Positions 5,487 to 37,605 of a stretch of 64,000 bases of DNA are shown one piece after another; position 1 is the first letter of the stretch; each line of letters begins with the position of its first letter. A model generated the notes under the pieces. The model saw only the letters and a list, made by a program, of their open reading frames with translations, searched no databases and was not told where the DNA came from. Both the position numbers and the translations under genes were made by a program. Origin of the DNA: Perkinsus marinus ATCC 50983 (Eukaryota; Perkinsozoa; Perkinsida; Perkinsidae); NCBI RefSeq assembly GCF_000006405.1, contig NW_003205565.1:218015-282014 (forward strand), read 5' to 3'.

Positions 5487-5838
5487 TTACAACGAACGAG
5501 GTTAACGTTGATCAACACACTACTGGACGATTACTGGCCTATAATTCAAAACGATAGGAGGAGTAGCTGCCCTCGAGCCTATCACTCGCGAGAAATTCGG
5601 GTGAAAATATTTCACTTCGCAGACGATTAAGCGAATAGGCCTTGAATGGTAAACGTGACGCATGGAGAGATTCTGACAAAGCATGCTACACTAACCTACA
5701 AGTGGAAGACTCGCTATGCCTCTCTCATATAATATACTACTATCACGCCCTGAGAGCTCATGTCTTCTGTGATTTCGCAAGCACCGAAAAAATTAATAGA
5801 AATATCAATTCCTGGAATTGAACCCGGGACCTCTGTGA
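5487..5838. other. Intergenic stretch before the repeat element
   Basis: No supported gene. The right end (about 5812-5838) carries GGAATTGAACC, the complement of a tRNA box B, immediately next to the insertion point of the TIR element. Confidence 0.5.
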
Positions 5839-5849
5839 CCTCATCTCTG
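5839..5849 (+). repeat. Candidate target-site duplication, left copy
   Basis: The 11-mer CCTCATCTCTG lies directly outside the left inverted terminus. The identical 11-mer, in the same orientation, lies directly outside the right terminus at 10963-10973. Length and placement fit a target-site duplication made by a cut-and-paste transposon. Confidence 0.7.
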
Positions 5850-5854
5850 GCGAT

Positions 5855-5894
5855 GCGGGCCTGCTGTCACCAACGACCGGGCCTGCTGACACCA
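5855..5894 (+). repeat. Left terminal inverted repeat
   Basis: It begins GCGGGCCTGCTGTCACCA and contains a second GGGCCTGCTGACACCA. The reverse complement of 10920-10959 matches it at 38 of 40 positions. Confidence 0.8.
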
Positions 5895-5944
5895 GCAGTC
5901 GCGCACGCCCAATTTTTTTTAGCACGCGAATTGTGTGACGCACT

Positions 5945-5963
5945 CCGCGGCCTACGGCCGCGG
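5945..5963. repeat. Subterminal hairpin, left
   Basis: Perfect inverted repeat: arms CCGCGGCC and GGCCGCGG with loop TAC. The right end has the equivalent hairpin with loop GTA at 10824-10842, the opposite orientation, as expected if it belongs to the inverted terminus. Confidence 0.7.
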
Positions 5964-6040
5964 ACTCCAGGGCCTAATGTCCACAGTGAATCAGAGAAAT
6001 TTAGCATCACTGTCTATTACTGGTATTTCAGGTTCTGCTG

Positions 6041-9000
6041 CACTTGAGCCAGTGCGCGGATCTATGATTCAAATTCAAACTATCCAACACAGTTACCAAT
6101 AATCCACAAGTGATACTAAGTTCCGGAACTGTCACCAGATGAGTGTATACGCTGCACTTGAGCCAGTGCGGTGGCTCTAGGGCTCGGCTTCGGATAACCA
6201 AACACAATTACCGATACTCTACAAGTGATACTTGGTTCCGGAACTGTAACCAGATAGGTGTATATGCTGCACTTGAGCCAGTGCGGTGGATCTATGATTC
6301 AAATTCAAACTATCCAACACAGTTACCAATAATCCACAAGTGATACTAAGTTCCGGAACTGTCACCAGATGAGTGTATACGCTGCACTTGAGCCAGTGCG
6401 GTGGCTCTAGGGCTCGGCTTCGGATAACCAAACACAATTACCGATACTCTACAAGTGATACTTGGTTCCGGAACTGTAACCAGATAGGTGTATATGCTGC
6501 ACTTGAGCCAGTGCGGTGGATCTATGATTCAAATTCAAACTATCCAACACAGTTACCAATAATCCACAAGTGATACTAAGTTCCGGAACTGTCACCAGAT
6601 GAGTGTATACGCTGCACTTGAGCCAGTGCGGTGGCTCTAGGGCTCGGCTTCGGATAACCAAACACAATTACCGATACTCTACAAGTGATGCTTGGTTCCG
6701 GAACTGTAACCAAATAAGTGTATATGCTGCACTTGAGCCAGTGCGGTGGCTCTAGGGCTCGGCTTCGGATAACCAAACACAATTACCGATACTCTACAAG
6801 TGATACTTGGTTCCGGAACTGTAAGCAGATAAATGTATATGCTGCACTTGAGCCAGTGCGGTGGATCTATGACTCGGCTTCAGATAACCAAACACAACTA
6901 CCGATACTCTACAAGTGATACTTGGTTCCGGAACTGTAACCAGATAGGTGTATATGCTGCACTTTAGCCAGTGTGGTGGATCTATGATTCGGATTCAAAT
7001 TATCCAACACAGTTACCAATATTCCACAAGTGATGCTAAGTTCCGGAACTGTAACCAGATGAGTGTATATGCTATAGTTGAGACACAGCAGTGGGTCTAT
7101 AACTCGGCTTCAGATAACCAAACACAATTACCGATACTCTACAAGTGATACTTGGTTCCGGAACTGTAACCAGATAAATGTATATGCTGCACTTGAGCCA
7201 GTGCGGTGGATCTATGATTCGAATTCAATTTATCCAACACAGTTAGCAATGATCCTTAAGTGATACTGGGTTCCGGAATCGCAACCAGATAAATGTATAT
7301 GCTATTATTGAGACACTGCGGTGGATCTATAACTCGGCTTCAGATAACCAAACACAATTACCGACACTCTACAAGTGATACTTGGTTCCGGAACTGTAAC
7401 CAGATAAGTGTATATGCTGCACTTTAGCCAGTGTGGTGGATCTATGATTCGGATTCAAGTTATCCAACACAGTTACCAGTATTCCACAAGTGATGCTAAG
7501 TTCCGGAACTGTAACCAGATGAGTGTATATGCTATAGTTGAGACACTGCGGTGGATCTATAACTCGGCTTCAGATAACCAAACACAATTACCGATACTCT
7601 ACAAGTGATACTTGGTTCCGGAACTGTAACCAGATAAGTGTATATGCTGCACTTGAGCCAGTGTGGTGGATCTATGATTCGGATTCAAATTATCCAACAC
7701 AGTTACCAATATTCCACAAGTGATGCTAAGTTCCGGAACTGTAACCAGATGAGTGTATATGCTATAGTTGAGACACTGCGGTGGATCTATAACTCGGCTT
7801 CAGATAACCAAACACAATTACCGATACTCTACAAGTGATACTTGGTTCCGGAATTATAATCAGATAAGTGTATATGCTGCACTTGAGCAAGTGTGGTGGA
7901 TCTATGATTCGGATTCAAATTATCCAACACAGTTACCAATATTCCACAAGTGATGCTAAGTTCTGGAACTGTAACCAGATGAGTGTATACGCTGCACTTG
8001 AGCCAATGTGGTGGCTCTAGGGCTCGGCTTTAGATTCCCAAACACAATTACCGATATTCTACGAGTGATACTAGGTTCCGGAATCGCAACCAGATAAATG
8101 TATATGCTATAGTTGAGACACAGCGGTGGGTCTATAACTCGGCTTCAGATAACCAAACACAATTACCGATACTCTACAAGTGATACTTGGTTCCGGAACT
8201 GTAAGCAGATAAATGTATATGCTGCACTTGAGCCAGTGCGGTGGATCTATGACTCGGCTTCAGATAACCAAACACAACTACCGATACTCTACAAGTGATA
8301 CTTGGTTCCGGAACTGTAACCAGATAGGTGTATATGCTGCACTTTAGCCAGTGTGGTGGATCTATGATTCGGATTCAAATTATCCAACACAGTTACCAAT
8401 ATTCCACAAGTGATGCTAAGTTCCGGAACTGTAACCAGATGAGTGTATATGCTATAGTTGAGACACTGCGGTGGATCTATAACTCGGCTTCAGATAACCA
8501 GACACAATTACCGATACTCTACAAGTGATACTTGGTTCCGGAATTATAATCAGATAAGTGTATATGCTGCACTTGAGCAAGTGTGGTGGATCTATGATTC
8601 GGATTCAAATTATCCAACACAGTTACCAATATTCCACAAGTGATACTAGGTTCCGGAATCGCAACCAGATAAATGTATATGCTATAGTTGAGACACAGCG
8701 GTGGGTCTATAACTCGGCTTCAGATAACCAAACACAATTACCGATATTCTACAAGTGATACTTGGTTCCGGAACTGTAACCAGATAAATGTATATGCTGC
8801 ACTTGAGCCAGTGCGGTGGATCTATGATTCGGATTCAAATTATCCAACACAGTTACCAATGATCCTTAAGTGATACTGGGTTCCGGAATCGCAACCAGAT
8901 AAATGTATATGCTATGGTTGAGACACTGCGGTGGATCTATAACTCGGCTTCAGATAACCAAACACAATTACCGATACTCTACAAGTGATACTTGGTTCCG

Positions 9001-10645
9001 GAACTGTAACCAGATAGGTGTATATGCTGCACTTGAGCAAGTGTGGTGGATCTATCATTCGGATTCAAATTATCCAACACAGTTACCAATATTTCACAAG
9101 TGACGCCAAGTTCCGGAACTGTAACCAGATGAGTGTATACGCTGCACTTGAGCCAGTGCGGTGGCTCTAGGGCTCGGCTTTAGATTACCAAACACAATTA
9201 CCGAGATTCTGCGAGTGATACTAGGTTCCGGAATCGCAACCAGATAAATGTATATGCTATAGTTGAGACACAGCAGTGGGTCTATAACTCGGCTTCAGAT
9301 AACCAAACACAATCACCGATACTCTACAAGTGATACTTGGTTCCGGAACTGTAACCAGATAAATGTATATGCTATACTTGAGACACTGCGGTGGATCTAT
9401 AACTCGGCTTCAGATAACCAAACACAATTACCGATACTCTACAAGTGATACTTGGTTCCGGAACTGTAACCAGATAAGTGTATATGCTGCACTTTAGCCA
9501 GTGTGGTGGATCTATGATTCGGATTCAAGTTATCCAACACAGTTACCAGTATTCCACAAGTGATGCTAAGTTCCGGAACTGTAACCAGATGAGTGTATAT
9601 GCTATAGTTGAGACACTGCGGTGGATCTATAACTCGGCTTCAGATAACCAAACACAATTACCGATACTCTACAAGTGATACTTGGTTCCGGAACTATAAT
9701 CAGATAAGTGTATATGCTGCACTTGAGCAAGTGTGGTGGATCTATGATTCGGATTCAAATTATCCAACACAGTTACCAATATTCCACAAGTGATGCTAAG
9801 TTCTGGAACTGTAACCAGATGAGTGTATACGCTGCACTTGAGCCAATGTGGTGGCTCTAGGGCTCGGCTCTAGATTCCCAAACACAATTACCGATATTCT
9901 ACGAGTGATACTAGGTTCCGGAATCGTAACCAGATAAATGTATATGCTATAGTTGAGACACAGCGGTGGGTCTCTAACTCGGCTTCAGATAACCAAACAC
10001 AATTACCGATACTCTACAAGTGATACTTGGTTCCGGAACTGTAACCAGATAAATGTATATGCTGCACTTGAGCCAGTGCGGTGGATCTATGATTCAGATT
10101 CAAATTATCCAACACAGTTACCAATGATCCACGAGTGATACTTGGTTCCGGAACTGTAACCAGATGAGTGTATATGCTATAGTTGAGACACTGCGGTGGA
10201 TCTATAACTCGGCTTCAGATAACCAAACACAATTACCGATACTCTACAAGTGATACTTGGTTCCGGAACTATAATCAGATAAGTGTATATGCTGCACTTG
10301 AGCAAGTGTGGTGGATCTATGATTCGGATTCAAATTATCCAACACAGTTACCAATATTCCACAAGTGATGCTAAGTTCTGGAACTGTAACCAGATGAGTG
10401 TATACGCTGCACTTGAGCCAATGTGGTGGGTCTAGCGCTCGGCTTTAGATTCCCAAACACAATTACCGATACTCTACAAGTGATACTTGGTTCCGGAACT
10501 GTAACCAGATAAGTGTATATGTTGCACTTGAGCAAGTGTGGTGGATCTACGATTCGGATTCAAATTATTCAACACAGTTACCAATATTCCACAAGTGATT
10601 CTGAGTTCTGGAACTGTAACCAGATGAATGTATACGCTGCACTTG
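6041..10645 (+). repeat. Tandem array of about 40 copies of a 115-bp unit
   Basis: The monomer begins CACTTGAGCCAGTGCGGTGG and repeats every 115 bp over 4.6 kb. Two main variants (around TATCCAACACAGTTACCAAT and AACCAAACACAATTACCGAT) often alternate, giving a 230-bp dimer. Longer blocks recur at larger multiples of 115, for example near 6948 and 8328 (12 units apart) and near 7408 and 9478 (18 units apart). Nearly every copy has the palindrome GTTCCGGAAC. Because 115 is not a multiple of three, the 61-72-codon ORFs inside are incidental and are not annotated as genes. Confidence 0.95.
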
Positions 10646-10823
10646 CACTTACTGAAACTCTCCGTATGGGAAAAGGCAGATTAAAAGGATAGGACCACAT
10701 TTTTTCATGAGATATTCAAATGCACGAAAAATGCGAGAAAATGCGCGGGGGGCGCGACACAACCAACATGGAGTCAAAAACGGTGGGTATCGTCGGTGCC
10801 AGACCTATAACAAAGCGAACCCG

Positions 10824-10842
10824 GCGCGGCCGTAGGCCGCGC
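10824..10842. repeat. Subterminal hairpin, right
   Basis: Arms GCGCGGCC and GGCCGCGC with loop GTA. A second palindrome, GCGACC-GTA-GGTCGC, follows at 10861-10875. Confidence 0.7.
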
Positions 10843-10919
10843 ACCCCCTCGGACATCGCCGCGACCGTAGGTCGCGTGTGGGAGAAACTGGGAGATAGTG
10901 GGAGGCCGTGGGAGTTCTT

Positions 10920-10959
10920 TGGTGTCAGCAGGCCCGGTCTTTGGTGACAGGAGGCCCGC
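10920..10959 (-). repeat. Right terminal inverted repeat
   Basis: Forward strand reads TGGTGTCAGCAGGCCCGG and onward; it is the reverse complement of 5855-5894 with two mismatches. Confidence 0.8.
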
Positions 10960-10962
10960 CGG

Positions 10963-10973
10963 CCTCATCTCTG
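10963..10973 (+). repeat. Candidate target-site duplication, right copy
   Basis: CCTCATCTCTG, identical to 5839-5849 and in direct orientation. Confidence 0.7.
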
Positions 10974-11031
10974 ACTTGTAACTTGTTTCTCTAAAGCAAA
11001 TCCCCGATGACTATGGCGATTTTGGCAGTGG

Positions 11032-11754
11032 TTGTTCATCGACATGTCACAAGCCCCGACCAAGAAGCGTCGAGTGATATGCTCGGGTTGCGAGCGGCCC
11101 GAATCCGTTTGCATCTGCAGCTCCTTTCCAGCAGAGCCTTTGTCGCTGCCAGCAGGAGTTGATTCTGTCGTTGTTCTCATGCACCCTAGCGAGCGGAAGC
11201 GAAAAAACCGCACCGTCGACTTGGTCGCCACAAAGTGCCTCAGAGGAGTTCACGTTGTTGTTGGTCGTCGCATCTTGGCCGACACATTGCCGATCGATTC
11301 TCCGCTCCAGGCGGTGCTGAAGAATCCTGAAGAATGTGCTTTGATCTATCCCACTGAGGATGCCGAGACGGTTCACGCTCAACACAGTGGTGACTCCAAA
11401 ATACGACATCTTATATTTCTTGATGCCACATGGAAGTACGCCAAGGAGATGTATGCATCGTCACCGCCACTTGTCGCCCTCAAGCACAAGTGGGTGTTGA
11501 AGCCCGACAAGGAAGGAGCATTCGTGATTCGGAAAGAGCCTCTTGCGAACGCAGGACTATTGTCAACTGCCGAGGCCATCGCTTTCGCCCTCGACGCCCT
11601 CTCGACCGACCATTCACGACTTCCTGTAGTGCGAGAGGTGCTGACACGGTTTTCCGAGATACAAATATCGCGTACTGAGCATGTGATCCACCATCGAGAG
11701 AAGAAGAACTATGTCGAGAACCTCTACGATCTGGGAGAGAGGTCCGCTAAGTAA
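11032..11754 (+). CDS. DTW-domain tRNA-uridine aminocarboxypropyltransferase
   Basis: This intronless ORF encodes 240 aa (236 if translation starts at the Met at 11044, MSQAPTKKRR). DTW-domain enzymes (TapT/TuaA, DTWD1/DTWD2) transfer the aminocarboxypropyl group of S-adenosylmethionine to N3 of uridine in tRNA, making acp3U. Visible here are an N-terminal Cys cluster (CSGCERPESVCICSS, residues about 18-32) typical of the family and the signature DATWKYAKEM (about residues 129-138), a DxTW variant of the motif that gives the family its name. The length fits the family. The 3' end of the TIR element lies only about 70 bp upstream, so the promoter and 5' UTR must overlap or lie inside the element. 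The ORF has no sign of decay. Confidence 0.88.
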   Translation: MFIDMSQAPTKKRRVICSGCERPESVCICSSFPAEPLSLPAGVDSVVVLMHPSERKRKNRTVDLVATKCLRGVHVVVGRRILADTLPIDSPLQAVLKNPEECALIYPTEDAETVHAQHSGDSKIRHLIFLDATWKYAKEMYASSPPLVALKHKWVLKPDKEGAFVIRKEPLANAGLLSTAEAIAFALDALSTDHSRLPVVREVLTRFSEIQISRTEHVIHHREKKNYVENLYDLGERSAK

Positions 11755-18372: not shown

Positions 18373-19588
18373 ATGACCGCCAATAAACGCTCCAGTAACT
18401 GGAATAATTATCGGCCTCGTAGGCGGGCCAGAACCTCCTCGCCTACTTCACCCGCTCCATCACCTATGTATCCTGATAGTAACACGTGGGAAGCACTTAG
18501 GTGTTACACTACGTCATTTCTGGAAGACGTCTTCGCTTTGACAGGGAGAACAGTGGTCATGAGGCGACCCCAAGACCGTTCTCCCTTGGAGGCCCCATTG
18601 GGGCCCGTCCCCACGGCCGAGCAAGGAAGACTTTCAGGTAAGTTCCTTCTTCCCTGCCTTTGTATTCTCCTTGCCTTCAGGTGTCCGCCAATCCGTTCTC
18701 TCGACTCTTCCCACTACTACTACTACTACACTCACCACTCCCTCACAGCCGAGTCCGCCCCCTACTACTAGTACTGCCCCGTTGCAATTAAGTTCTACTA
18801 CTACTACTATCATCCCACCACAGCCGAGTCCAACTCCTACTCCTAGTACCACTCCTACTACTACTATCATCCCACCACAGCCAAGTCCGACCCCTACTAC
18901 TAGTACCACTCCTGCTGCTACTATCATCCCACCACAGCCGAGTCCGACCCCTACTACTAGTACCACTCCTGCTGCTACTATCATCCCACCACAGCCGAGT
19001 CCGACCCCTACTCCTAGTACCACTCCTGCTGCTACTATCATCCCACCACAGCCGAGTCCGACCCCTACTACTAGTACCACTCCTGCTGCTACTATCATGC
19101 CACCACAGCCGAGTCCAACTCCTACTTCTAGTACCACTCCTACTACTACTATCATGCCACCACAGCCGAGTCCAACTCCTACTCCTAGTACCACTCCTAC
19201 TACTACTACTATCATGCCACCACAGCCGAGTCCAACTCCTACTCCTAGTACCACTCCTACTACTACTACTATCATGCCACCACAGCCGAGTCCAACTCCT
19301 ACTCCTAGTACCACTCCTACTACTACTATCATCCCACCACAGCCGAGTCCGACTCCCGCTGGTACTACGATATCATCACATCCAAGTCAGCCTCCTTCTA
19401 CTACAACTGATCCAGCTAAGTCAAGCTCTACTGCTGTCTCTGCTGAGCTGGCAGAGTTAAGGTCTGACCTCAGAGCTCTCACTGCTCTTGTAGGTCGCTT
19501 GGTGGCTGCTCAAGCACCTACATCTTCGTCCCCTTCCCTTTACCCTACTCCCGCTGAGGAGGGTATGGATGATGTTAAGGAATCATAG
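18373..19588 (+). CDS. Thr/Pro/Ser-repeat protein with C-terminal coiled coil, unknown
   Basis: Two exons (18373-18637 and 18681-19588) join across a 43-nt GT-AG intron, giving about 390 aa. Order of regions: a basic, Arg-rich N-terminus ([18 protein letters not shown]), a short globular stretch ([19 protein letters not shown]), ten copies of a 19-20-residue repeat of the form [12 protein letters not shown]-x-STTP-xxT, and a C-terminal coiled-coil segment ([20 protein letters not shown]). There is no signal peptide or membrane segment. The reverse strand of the repeat is also open for 232 codons, which is an effect of the repeat. The layout (basic head, low-complexity middle, coiled coil) could suit an element-encoded nucleic-acid-binding protein, but no relative is recognised. 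Confidence 0.55.
18797..19366 (+). repeat. 57-60-bp coding minisatellite, 10 copies
   Basis: The unit ATCATCCCACCACAGCCGAG and onward, 19 or 20 codons long, repeats in frame inside the preceding gene. Copies differ by whole ACT codons and by a few substitutions (ATC/ATG, ACT/GCT), the pattern expected from slippage and unequal exchange. Confidence 0.9.
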
Positions 19589-37506: not shown

Positions 37507-37540
<34 letters not shown>

Positions 37541-37545
37541 AGTAG

Positions 37546-37605
<60 letters not shown>

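What the first reader, a model, noticed from the sequence alone, without database searches (positions are those of the whole stretch)
5839..10973. Minisatellite array enclosed in a transposon-like unit with TIRs and an 11-bp target duplication
Seen directly: 40-bp inverted repeats at 95% identity, an identical 11-mer (CCTCATCTCTG) immediately outside both, and nothing between them but subterminal hairpins and 40 tandem 115-bp units. Terminal structure with no transposase suggests a non-autonomous element whose cargo is a minisatellite, a form that could move whole satellite arrays around the genome. I do not know a described family with this layout in perkinsids.
Basis: partly seen in the sequence, partly recalled or inferred. 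Interest (0 to 1): 0.88.

Follow-up and report, generated by a model that had tools for sequence, protein, structure and literature searches.

The report
Jumping gene carrying a minisatellite array
A 5.1-kb stretch of this genome, which seems to belong to a relative of the oyster parasite Perkinsus, looks like a "cut-and-paste" jumping element that has no enzyme of its own and carries forty copies of a 115-letter repeat; related repeat arrays sit inside jumping elements with different ends elsewhere in the genome, which suggests that transposons have spread this short satellite.

Summary
In detail: 40-bp inverted termini (38/40), duplicated flanking bases, forty 115-bp units between. The best-supported boundary is 5850-10964 with a 9-bp, not 11-bp, target duplication (TCATCTCTG); the related element C66 allows exactly 9. 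The termini recur at C25 and C52, and a C52-like locus, C69, is unoccupied. All seven arrays of five or more units found have, at one or both ends, a tip made of a 22-bp motif twice (0 in 128.8 kb of control); 17 of 19 ends scanned have a G+C hairpin 75-131 bases inside; four of four elements with both tips readable have perfect 9-bp duplications. Two larger elements with such ends hold frames for a MULE-type transposase beside a PIF1-like helicase. So the window element is most likely a non-autonomous Mutator-like transposon (MULE) with minisatellite cargo. Unexpectedly, outside the window units are 90-94% alike between elements with four kinds of tips, while the two putative transposases are about 40% identical, so the satellite may have passed between MULE families. 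No transposase was found with the window's own tips. Minisatellite-bearing MULE relatives (Rehavkus) are known; I saw no description of one satellite shared across tip families in the listings and passages I looked at.

The parts
5841..5849 (+). left copy of 9-bp target site duplication TCATCTCTG
   Evidence: 9-bp reading rests on C66
10965..10973 (+). right copy of 9-bp target site duplication TCATCTCTG
5850..10964 (.). whole non-autonomous MULE-like element with minisatellite cargo
5850..5894 (+). end A: terminal inverted repeat beginning GCGATG; tip holds a 22-bp motif twice
   Evidence: recurs in C25 (90% over 114 bp)
10916..10964 (-). end B: terminal inverted repeat beginning (on - strand) GGCCGG; 22-bp motif twice
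   Evidence: recurs in C52 (89% over 334 aligned columns)
5946..5962 (.). subterminal G+C hairpin CGCGGCC-TAC-GGCCGCG, starting 97 bases inside end A
10860..10876 (.). subterminal G+C hairpin, starting 89 bases inside end B
10825..10841 (.). second subterminal G+C hairpin, starting 124 bases inside end B
6036..10645 (-). minisatellite array, 40 units of 115 bp, best TRF period 230; strand given relative to the unit frame of C18
10646..10919 (.). right subterminal spacer, shared with C52
11044..11754 (+). host gene with DTW domain, first ATG 70 bases beyond the right target duplication (neighbour, not part of the element)
   Evidence: Pfam DTW 118.2 bits, cut-off 33.7; open frame 11011-11754; start codon inferred

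Best explanation
The unit at 5850-10964 is a non-autonomous Mutator-like DNA transposon (a satellite-loaded MULE). Its two ends are recognised in trans by a MULE transposase, probably working with a PIF1-like helicase made by larger relatives; a 9-bp staggered cut gives the flanking duplication. Its interior was replaced by a 115-bp satellite unit (perhaps by interrupted gap repair with template switching, a route recalled from the MULE literature, not from a call), which then grew to 40 copies by unequal exchange or slippage. The same kind of satellite is carried by elements of several other tip types in this genome, so transposons disperse satellite arrays. Shown: ends, duplications, other copies, an unoccupied locus, larger relatives with transposase and helicase frames, related satellite in elements with other tips. 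Inferred: trans-mobilisation of this tip family, the capture route, the growth route, movement of the satellite between families.
For: TIR and duplication. Tips recur at C25 and C52. Locus C69 is like C52 along the flank (main pieces 91.8-97.2% identical) and uninterrupted where C52 has the element. 4 of 4 elements with both tips readable have perfect 9-bp duplications: C199, C18, C66, C137. 7 of 7 arrays with 5 or more units have the 22-bp double tip at one or both ends; control 0 in 128.8 kb; the motif length was chosen after seeing the first tips. Hairpin within 150 bp of the tip in 17 of 19 ends scanned; control 2 in 128.8 kb. C294 carries tip type T2 and frames matching MULE (PF10551, 28.9 bits, cut-off 27.6) and PIF1 (54.5 bits, cut-off 25.9). 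C137:850.5-856.8 kb has the same order of frames, 32-40% identical, inside a T4-like end. Outside the window, units of different loci are 0.90-0.94 identical, about as much as within one array.
Against: No transposase was found between tips of the window's own type (T1); T1 tips are not significantly similar to T2 or T4 tips by a shuffle test (best pair: 62 of 1000 shuffles reach it), so the MULE label for T1 rests on architecture, duplication length and related cargo. The putative autonomous relatives are not shown to be intact: their genes are split over several frames, the C137 alignment runs over two stops, and no Pfam scan of it was obtained (one search failed). The C52 end cannot be checked for a duplication, and its last presumed duplicated base differs from C69 (C against T). 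A short array at C268 (about 3.6 units) and a 2-unit stretch at C261 show no double tip within about 1 kb. Right end of C251 not found; right side of C60 has an assembly gap, so T3 rests on one end of one element. Relative to end B the array lies in opposite orientations in the window and in C52. The window's units are only 0.75-0.79 identical to the others.
Confidence: 0.85

Rival explanations
1. Vertical descent: one ancestral MULE already carried the 115-bp array; its descendants' tips diverged into the four kinds while the units were kept alike by selection or by gene conversion between loci, so no satellite moved between families.
For: Common anatomy of the ends; the hairpin GCGGGCC-TYC-GGCCCGC sits 75-80 bases from the tip in 13 of the 15 T2-T4 ends scanned; T2-T3 and T3-T4 tips are weakly similar (best 5 and 1 of 1000 shuffles, uncorrected). 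In several arrays most units have their nearest neighbour in their own array (C60 22 of 28, C137 12 of 19, C52 11 of 16).
Against: Units are 90-94% alike across tip types while the two putative transposases are 40% identical and most tip pairs are not alignable above shuffles; the two transposase-bearing copies have no array in the parts seen; array orientation differs within the T1 family; nearest neighbours often lie in elements of another tip type (C18 12 of 17 in C52).
Confidence: 0.3
2. hAT element: the 8-bp part of the duplication and the hAT transposase frame beside the C25 end make the window unit a hAT derivative.
For: 850-codon open frame with DUF4371 and Dimer_Tnp_hAT domains about 1 kb from the C25 T1 end.
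Against: A sequence resembling a hAT terminus lies between that frame and the T1 end (seen by eye; its partner was not found in the stretch searched); C66 has a duplication of exactly 9 bp; two elements with ends of the same architecture hold MULE-type frames.
Confidence: 0.04
3. Ordinary satellite array that by chance lies between two imperfect inverted repeats, with a chance 11-mer.
For: Only weak: units with no recognised tips exist at C268 and C261.
Against: Tips recur in the genome with a zero control; unoccupied locus C69; similar anatomy at all 7 longer arrays found.
Confidence: 0.02

Closest known systems
Rehavkus DNA transposons (MULE relatives; arthropods, annelids)
   Same: 9-bp target duplication, terminal inverted repeats, a minisatellite as a regular part of the element (PMC6446971, passages; a 164-bp satellite unit in the inverted termini of Rehavkus-1_TC, PMC10218199, passages)
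   Different: In Rehavkus the repeat lies before the 3' TIR or in the inverted termini, and the transposase has a PHD finger; here the array fills most of the element between the TIRs, no transposase was found in it, no PHD finger was found in the C294 frames, and related satellite is shared by several tip types.
Pack-MULEs of plants
   Same: MULE TIRs that enclose foreign DNA and are moved by a transposase provided in trans (PMC6431247, passages)
   Different: cargo there is gene fragments, here a tandem satellite
Satellite-bearing MITE-type elements (miDNA4 of Xenopus, CvA/pearl of bivalves) and Tetris of Drosophila virilis
   Same: non-autonomous DNA elements that contain tandem repeats and can seed satellites (review PMC9659126, passages; Tetris PMC4079207, listing and abstract start only)
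   Different: other kinds of element; the passages I saw do not describe one repeat shared across elements with different termini
Dada transposons
   Same: possible preference for Pol III-type targets (PMC3706591, listing and abstract start only)
   Different: here only 4 of 23 flanks have a box-B-like word within 60 bp, and the duplication is 9 bp (6-7 bp in Dada is recalled, from no call)

Membership tests
MULE (Mutator-like) superfamily | target duplication of 8-11 bp (PMC6446971) | tested here: met
   9 bp in 4 of 4 elements with both tips readable; exactly 9 in C66
MULE (Mutator-like) superfamily | terminal inverted repeats (some MULE families lack them) | tested here: met
   window 38/40; C18 left against right 99% over 381; the two C66 TIRs are each 96-97% to the C18 TIR
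MULE (Mutator-like) superfamily | MULE-type DDE transposase in the autonomous partner | tested here: inconclusive
   PF10551 above cut-off in the T2 element C294; in the T4-like element C137b by tblastn similarity only (Pfam failed); none found with the window's own tip type T1; catalytic residues not examined
Rehavkus | minisatellite inside the element | tested here: met
   array 6036-10645
Rehavkus | PHD finger in the transposase | tested here: not met
   no PHD family among Pfam matches at E<=0.1 for the four C294 frames (best 25 per protein shown); the window element itself has no known protein, so this tests only a relative with other tips
hAT | 8-bp target duplication | tested here: not met
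   C66 allows exactly 9
Foldback/Tetris-like | tandem repeats inside both long inverted arms | tested here: not met
   single array in one orientation between short TIRs
Helitron/Helentron | no target duplication and no terminal inverted repeats | tested here: not met
   both are present

The most novel reading that the evidence does not exclude
Perkinsid genomes hold a group of MULEs that carry a PIF1-like helicase next to the transposase and end in a 22-bp double tip plus a subterminal hairpin; a 115-bp satellite behaves as a hyperparasite of this group, being loaded into the non-autonomous members of at least four tip types and spread by them, perhaps because the helicase-assisted copying that moves these elements also multiplies tandem units.
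Probability: 0.4. Interest if true: 0.78.

Novelty: new variant of a known kind. Interest (0 to 1): 0.64.

Why it matters
How satellite arrays reach many places in a genome is an old question. Here one genome holds what looks like the vehicle, the cargo, an unoccupied site and larger relatives with transposase and helicase frames, and related cargo in vehicles with different ends. That allows a direct test of whether satellites are passengers that change transposon families, and of whether a helicase-bearing MULE makes tandem arrays as a by-product of moving.

Tried and rejected
The hAT frame beside the C25 end was considered as the partner transposase and set aside. An 8-bp duplication was considered and dropped because C66 allows exactly 9. 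ARAGORN and Rfam (gathering scores) found no tRNA in the window and the loci given, also after joining the window flanks in a script. A second copy of the window's left flank was not found. The 1.4-kb interior of C52 was searched for a link to a transposase; it matches scattered repeats piecewise. For tip type T3 (C60) no second copy was found. Sequence homology of T1 tips to T2 or T4 tips could not be shown. The tip in L055 (here T5) was first taken for the right end of the C137 element and is entered as T4R in the shuffle test; the right end is at C137:13885. C67 has T2-like sequence at both ends but its left tip is degraded, so it was left out of the duplication count. In one search four ends (C144, C277 and both of C67) were not scanned for the hairpin. 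C129 and C71 (under one unit each) were not fetched. The control stretches (window outside the element, L021-L024, L027-L029) include homologous pairs (C52 and C69), so they are not all independent.
Full report
WHAT IS THERE. The finding's coordinates hold a unit with inverted ends (38 of 40 bases), an array of forty 115-bp units at 6036-10645, three G+C hairpins near the ends, and an 11-mer present only at the two junctions in the 64 kb. A search with four protein pieces of a related element (MULE and helicase) finds no such gene in the window.

OTHER COPIES OF THE SAME ENDS (type T1). The 37-base terminus with up to 3 mismatches matches 4 places in 54.46 Mb: the two window ends, C25 and C52; the control pattern matches none. 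C25 has an end A (90% over 114 bp), C52 an end B (89% over 334 aligned columns). C52 then runs through 1.4 kb that matches scattered repeats piecewise into a 115-bp array that reaches the contig end. C69 holds the same flank as C52: pieces of 5,400 columns at 94.6%, 3,330 at 94.9%, 2,123 at 92.3%, 1,096 at 91.8% and 285 at 97.2%, besides an overlapping one of 639 at 83.4%; it continues without interruption where C52 has the element. Whether C52 and C69 are alleles or duplicates was not settled. A search with 641 bp of the window's left flank found only itself.

ARRAYS ELSEWHERE SIT IN ELEMENTS WITH OTHER TIPS. A unit search found matches on 12 contigs (the tool warns that counts are lower bounds). 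C18 and C66 are complete elements with TIRs of about 345-390 bp that lie within about 90 bp of the array or meet it. Their TIR sequence (T2), in whole or in part, also occurs at C251, C294, C42, C86, C304, C144, C67, C194 and C277 (C194 and the left end of C67 lack the tip). C60 has a third tip (T3; one end seen, no second copy found) and C137 a fourth (T4, with its own right end at C137:13885 and further copies at C9, C345 and, 74% alike, C137:857 kb). All seven arrays of five or more units found (C199, C52, C18, C251, C66, C60, C137) have a 22-bp motif twice at one or both ends (at least 14 of 17 bases alike); the same test gives 0 in 128.8 kb of control, though the motif length was chosen after seeing the first tips. 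Of the smaller arrays examined, C86 has it at one end and C268 and C261 do not. A hairpin (7-bp stem, 3-base loop) lies within 150 bp of the tip in 17 of 19 ends scanned: at base 75-80 in 13 of the 15 T2-T4 ends, at 89-131 in the 4 T1 ends; C66 end A and C345 have none; control 2 in 128.8 kb.

TARGET DUPLICATIONS. The four elements with both tips readable have perfect 9-bp duplications: window TCATCTCTG, C18 ACAAACTTT, C66 GGGTGATGG, C137 CGTAAAAAT. C66 allows neither more nor less; the other three would also allow somewhat longer ones. With the boundary set there, the two ends of each element differ in the first six bases in a similar way (one begins GC, as GCGATG, GCTACC, GCTGCG; the other GGCC or GCCC); this was seen by eye, not tested.

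LARGER RELATIVES WITH A TRANSPOSASE. C294, with a T2 tip on the left and T2 TIR sequence on the right (its right tip falls in a run of N), holds frames with a MULE transposase domain (28.9 bits, cut-off 27.6) and a PIF1-like helicase domain (54.5 bits, cut-off 25.9); a SWIM match stays below its cut-off. C137:850.5-856.8 kb, inside a T4-like end, has helicase and MULE frames in the same order and orientation, 32-40% identical; its other end was not located, its MULE alignment crosses two stops, and a Pfam scan of it failed on coordinates. In both, the genes are split over several frames, so they are putative autonomous elements, not shown to work. No array was found in either in the parts seen; C294 has one 21-bp match to the unit. 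A protein search with the C294 transposase gave two hits, the only named one a Perkinsus marinus protein, 52% identical (only the 8,000 candidates sharing most words were scored). I searched for MULEs with PIF1 in print (18 papers held four or five of the five terms; I looked at passages of two of them, and saw none), so I do not claim that this pairing is undescribed.

THE SHARED SATELLITE. 159 near-full units out of 171 hits in nine arrays were aligned (C261, C129 and C71 not included; C86 gives one unit, C268 three). Outside the window, mean identity between loci is 0.90-0.94, and within loci 0.91-0.95, across tip types T1 (C52), T2 (C18, C251, C66, C86), T3 (C60) and T4 (C137). Some locus structure remains: units with their nearest neighbour in their own array are 22 of 28 in C60, 12 of 19 in C137, 11 of 16 in C52, 11 of 29 in C251, 2 of 6 in C66 and 2 of 17 in C18. 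The window's units stand apart: 0.84 among themselves, 0.75-0.79 to the rest, and all 40 have their nearest neighbour inside the window array. So the close sharing is shown for the other loci, and the window array is a more distant member. Tip sequences of T1 against T2 or T4 are not more alike than shuffles; T2-T3 and T3-T4 are weakly so (21 pairs tested, uncorrected, one of the seven tips being the T5 tip). The satellite therefore looks younger in its present places than the split of the tip types. The alternative, homogenisation between loci of an anciently inherited array, is not excluded.

HOW IT PROBABLY WORKS. Shown: ends, duplications, recurrence, an unoccupied locus, larger relatives with transposase frames, related cargo. 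Inferred: a MULE transposase acts on the window element's ends in trans; the interior was lost and replaced by the satellite during incomplete repair after excision; the array then grew by unequal exchange or slippage. The window insertion lies 70 bases upstream of the first ATG of a DTW-domain frame, in keeping with the recalled habit of MULEs to land near gene starts.

COMPARISON. Rehavkus is the nearest described kind: MULE-related, 9-bp duplication, minisatellite (PMC6446971, passages; PMC10218199, passages). The window element differs in position of the array, lack of a known gene, the absence of a PHD finger in its C294 relative, and in sharing its kind of satellite with other tip types. 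Searches for satellites in MULEs (20 of 30 papers listed; 10 listed), for Rehavkus (8 listed) and for transposons of Perkinsus (20 listed of 5,059 and of 9,469 that hold at least three of four terms) listed no paper whose title or abstract start describes this arrangement; most listed papers were not read.

Noticed in passing
window 5790-5849; L020 4919-4978; L044 left of the C67 element; L065 (C137:857 kb): 4 of 23 flanks have a box-B-like word (GGTTCRANYCC, up to 1 mismatch) within 60 bp, all with a hit in the same orientation; background 120 of 8502 60-mers, binomial P about 3e-4, post hoc. Possible preference for Pol III-type or SINE sequences.
   Followed up: partly
window array 6036-10645 and other arrays: Most units hold a 10-bp palindrome around TTCCGGAA; the outer pair is A..T in 85 of 119 units elsewhere and G..C in 28 of 40 in the window; the core is broken in 14 and 4 units. 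It is as if a symmetric site were kept.
   Followed up: partly
L017 1485-4037 (C25): Open frame of 850 codons with DUF4371 and hAT dimerisation domains beside the T1 end.
   Followed up: partly
L045 (C277:48489-48600): The 22-bp tip motif of T2 is repeated four to five times in a row; no longer T2 TIR match was found there.
   Followed up: no
L055 1080-1215 and L066 480-572: Another 22-bp double tip (T5; cut by N in L066) beside a tRNA-like stretch, inside or next to T4 ends (seen by eye).
   Followed up: no
L020 5915-6175 (C52): A repeat of about 260 bp with 68-77% identical full or partial copies on more than ten contigs.
   Followed up: no
window 18798-19356 and 37507-37605: A 57-bp tandem array and a CTA microsatellite.
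   Followed up: no
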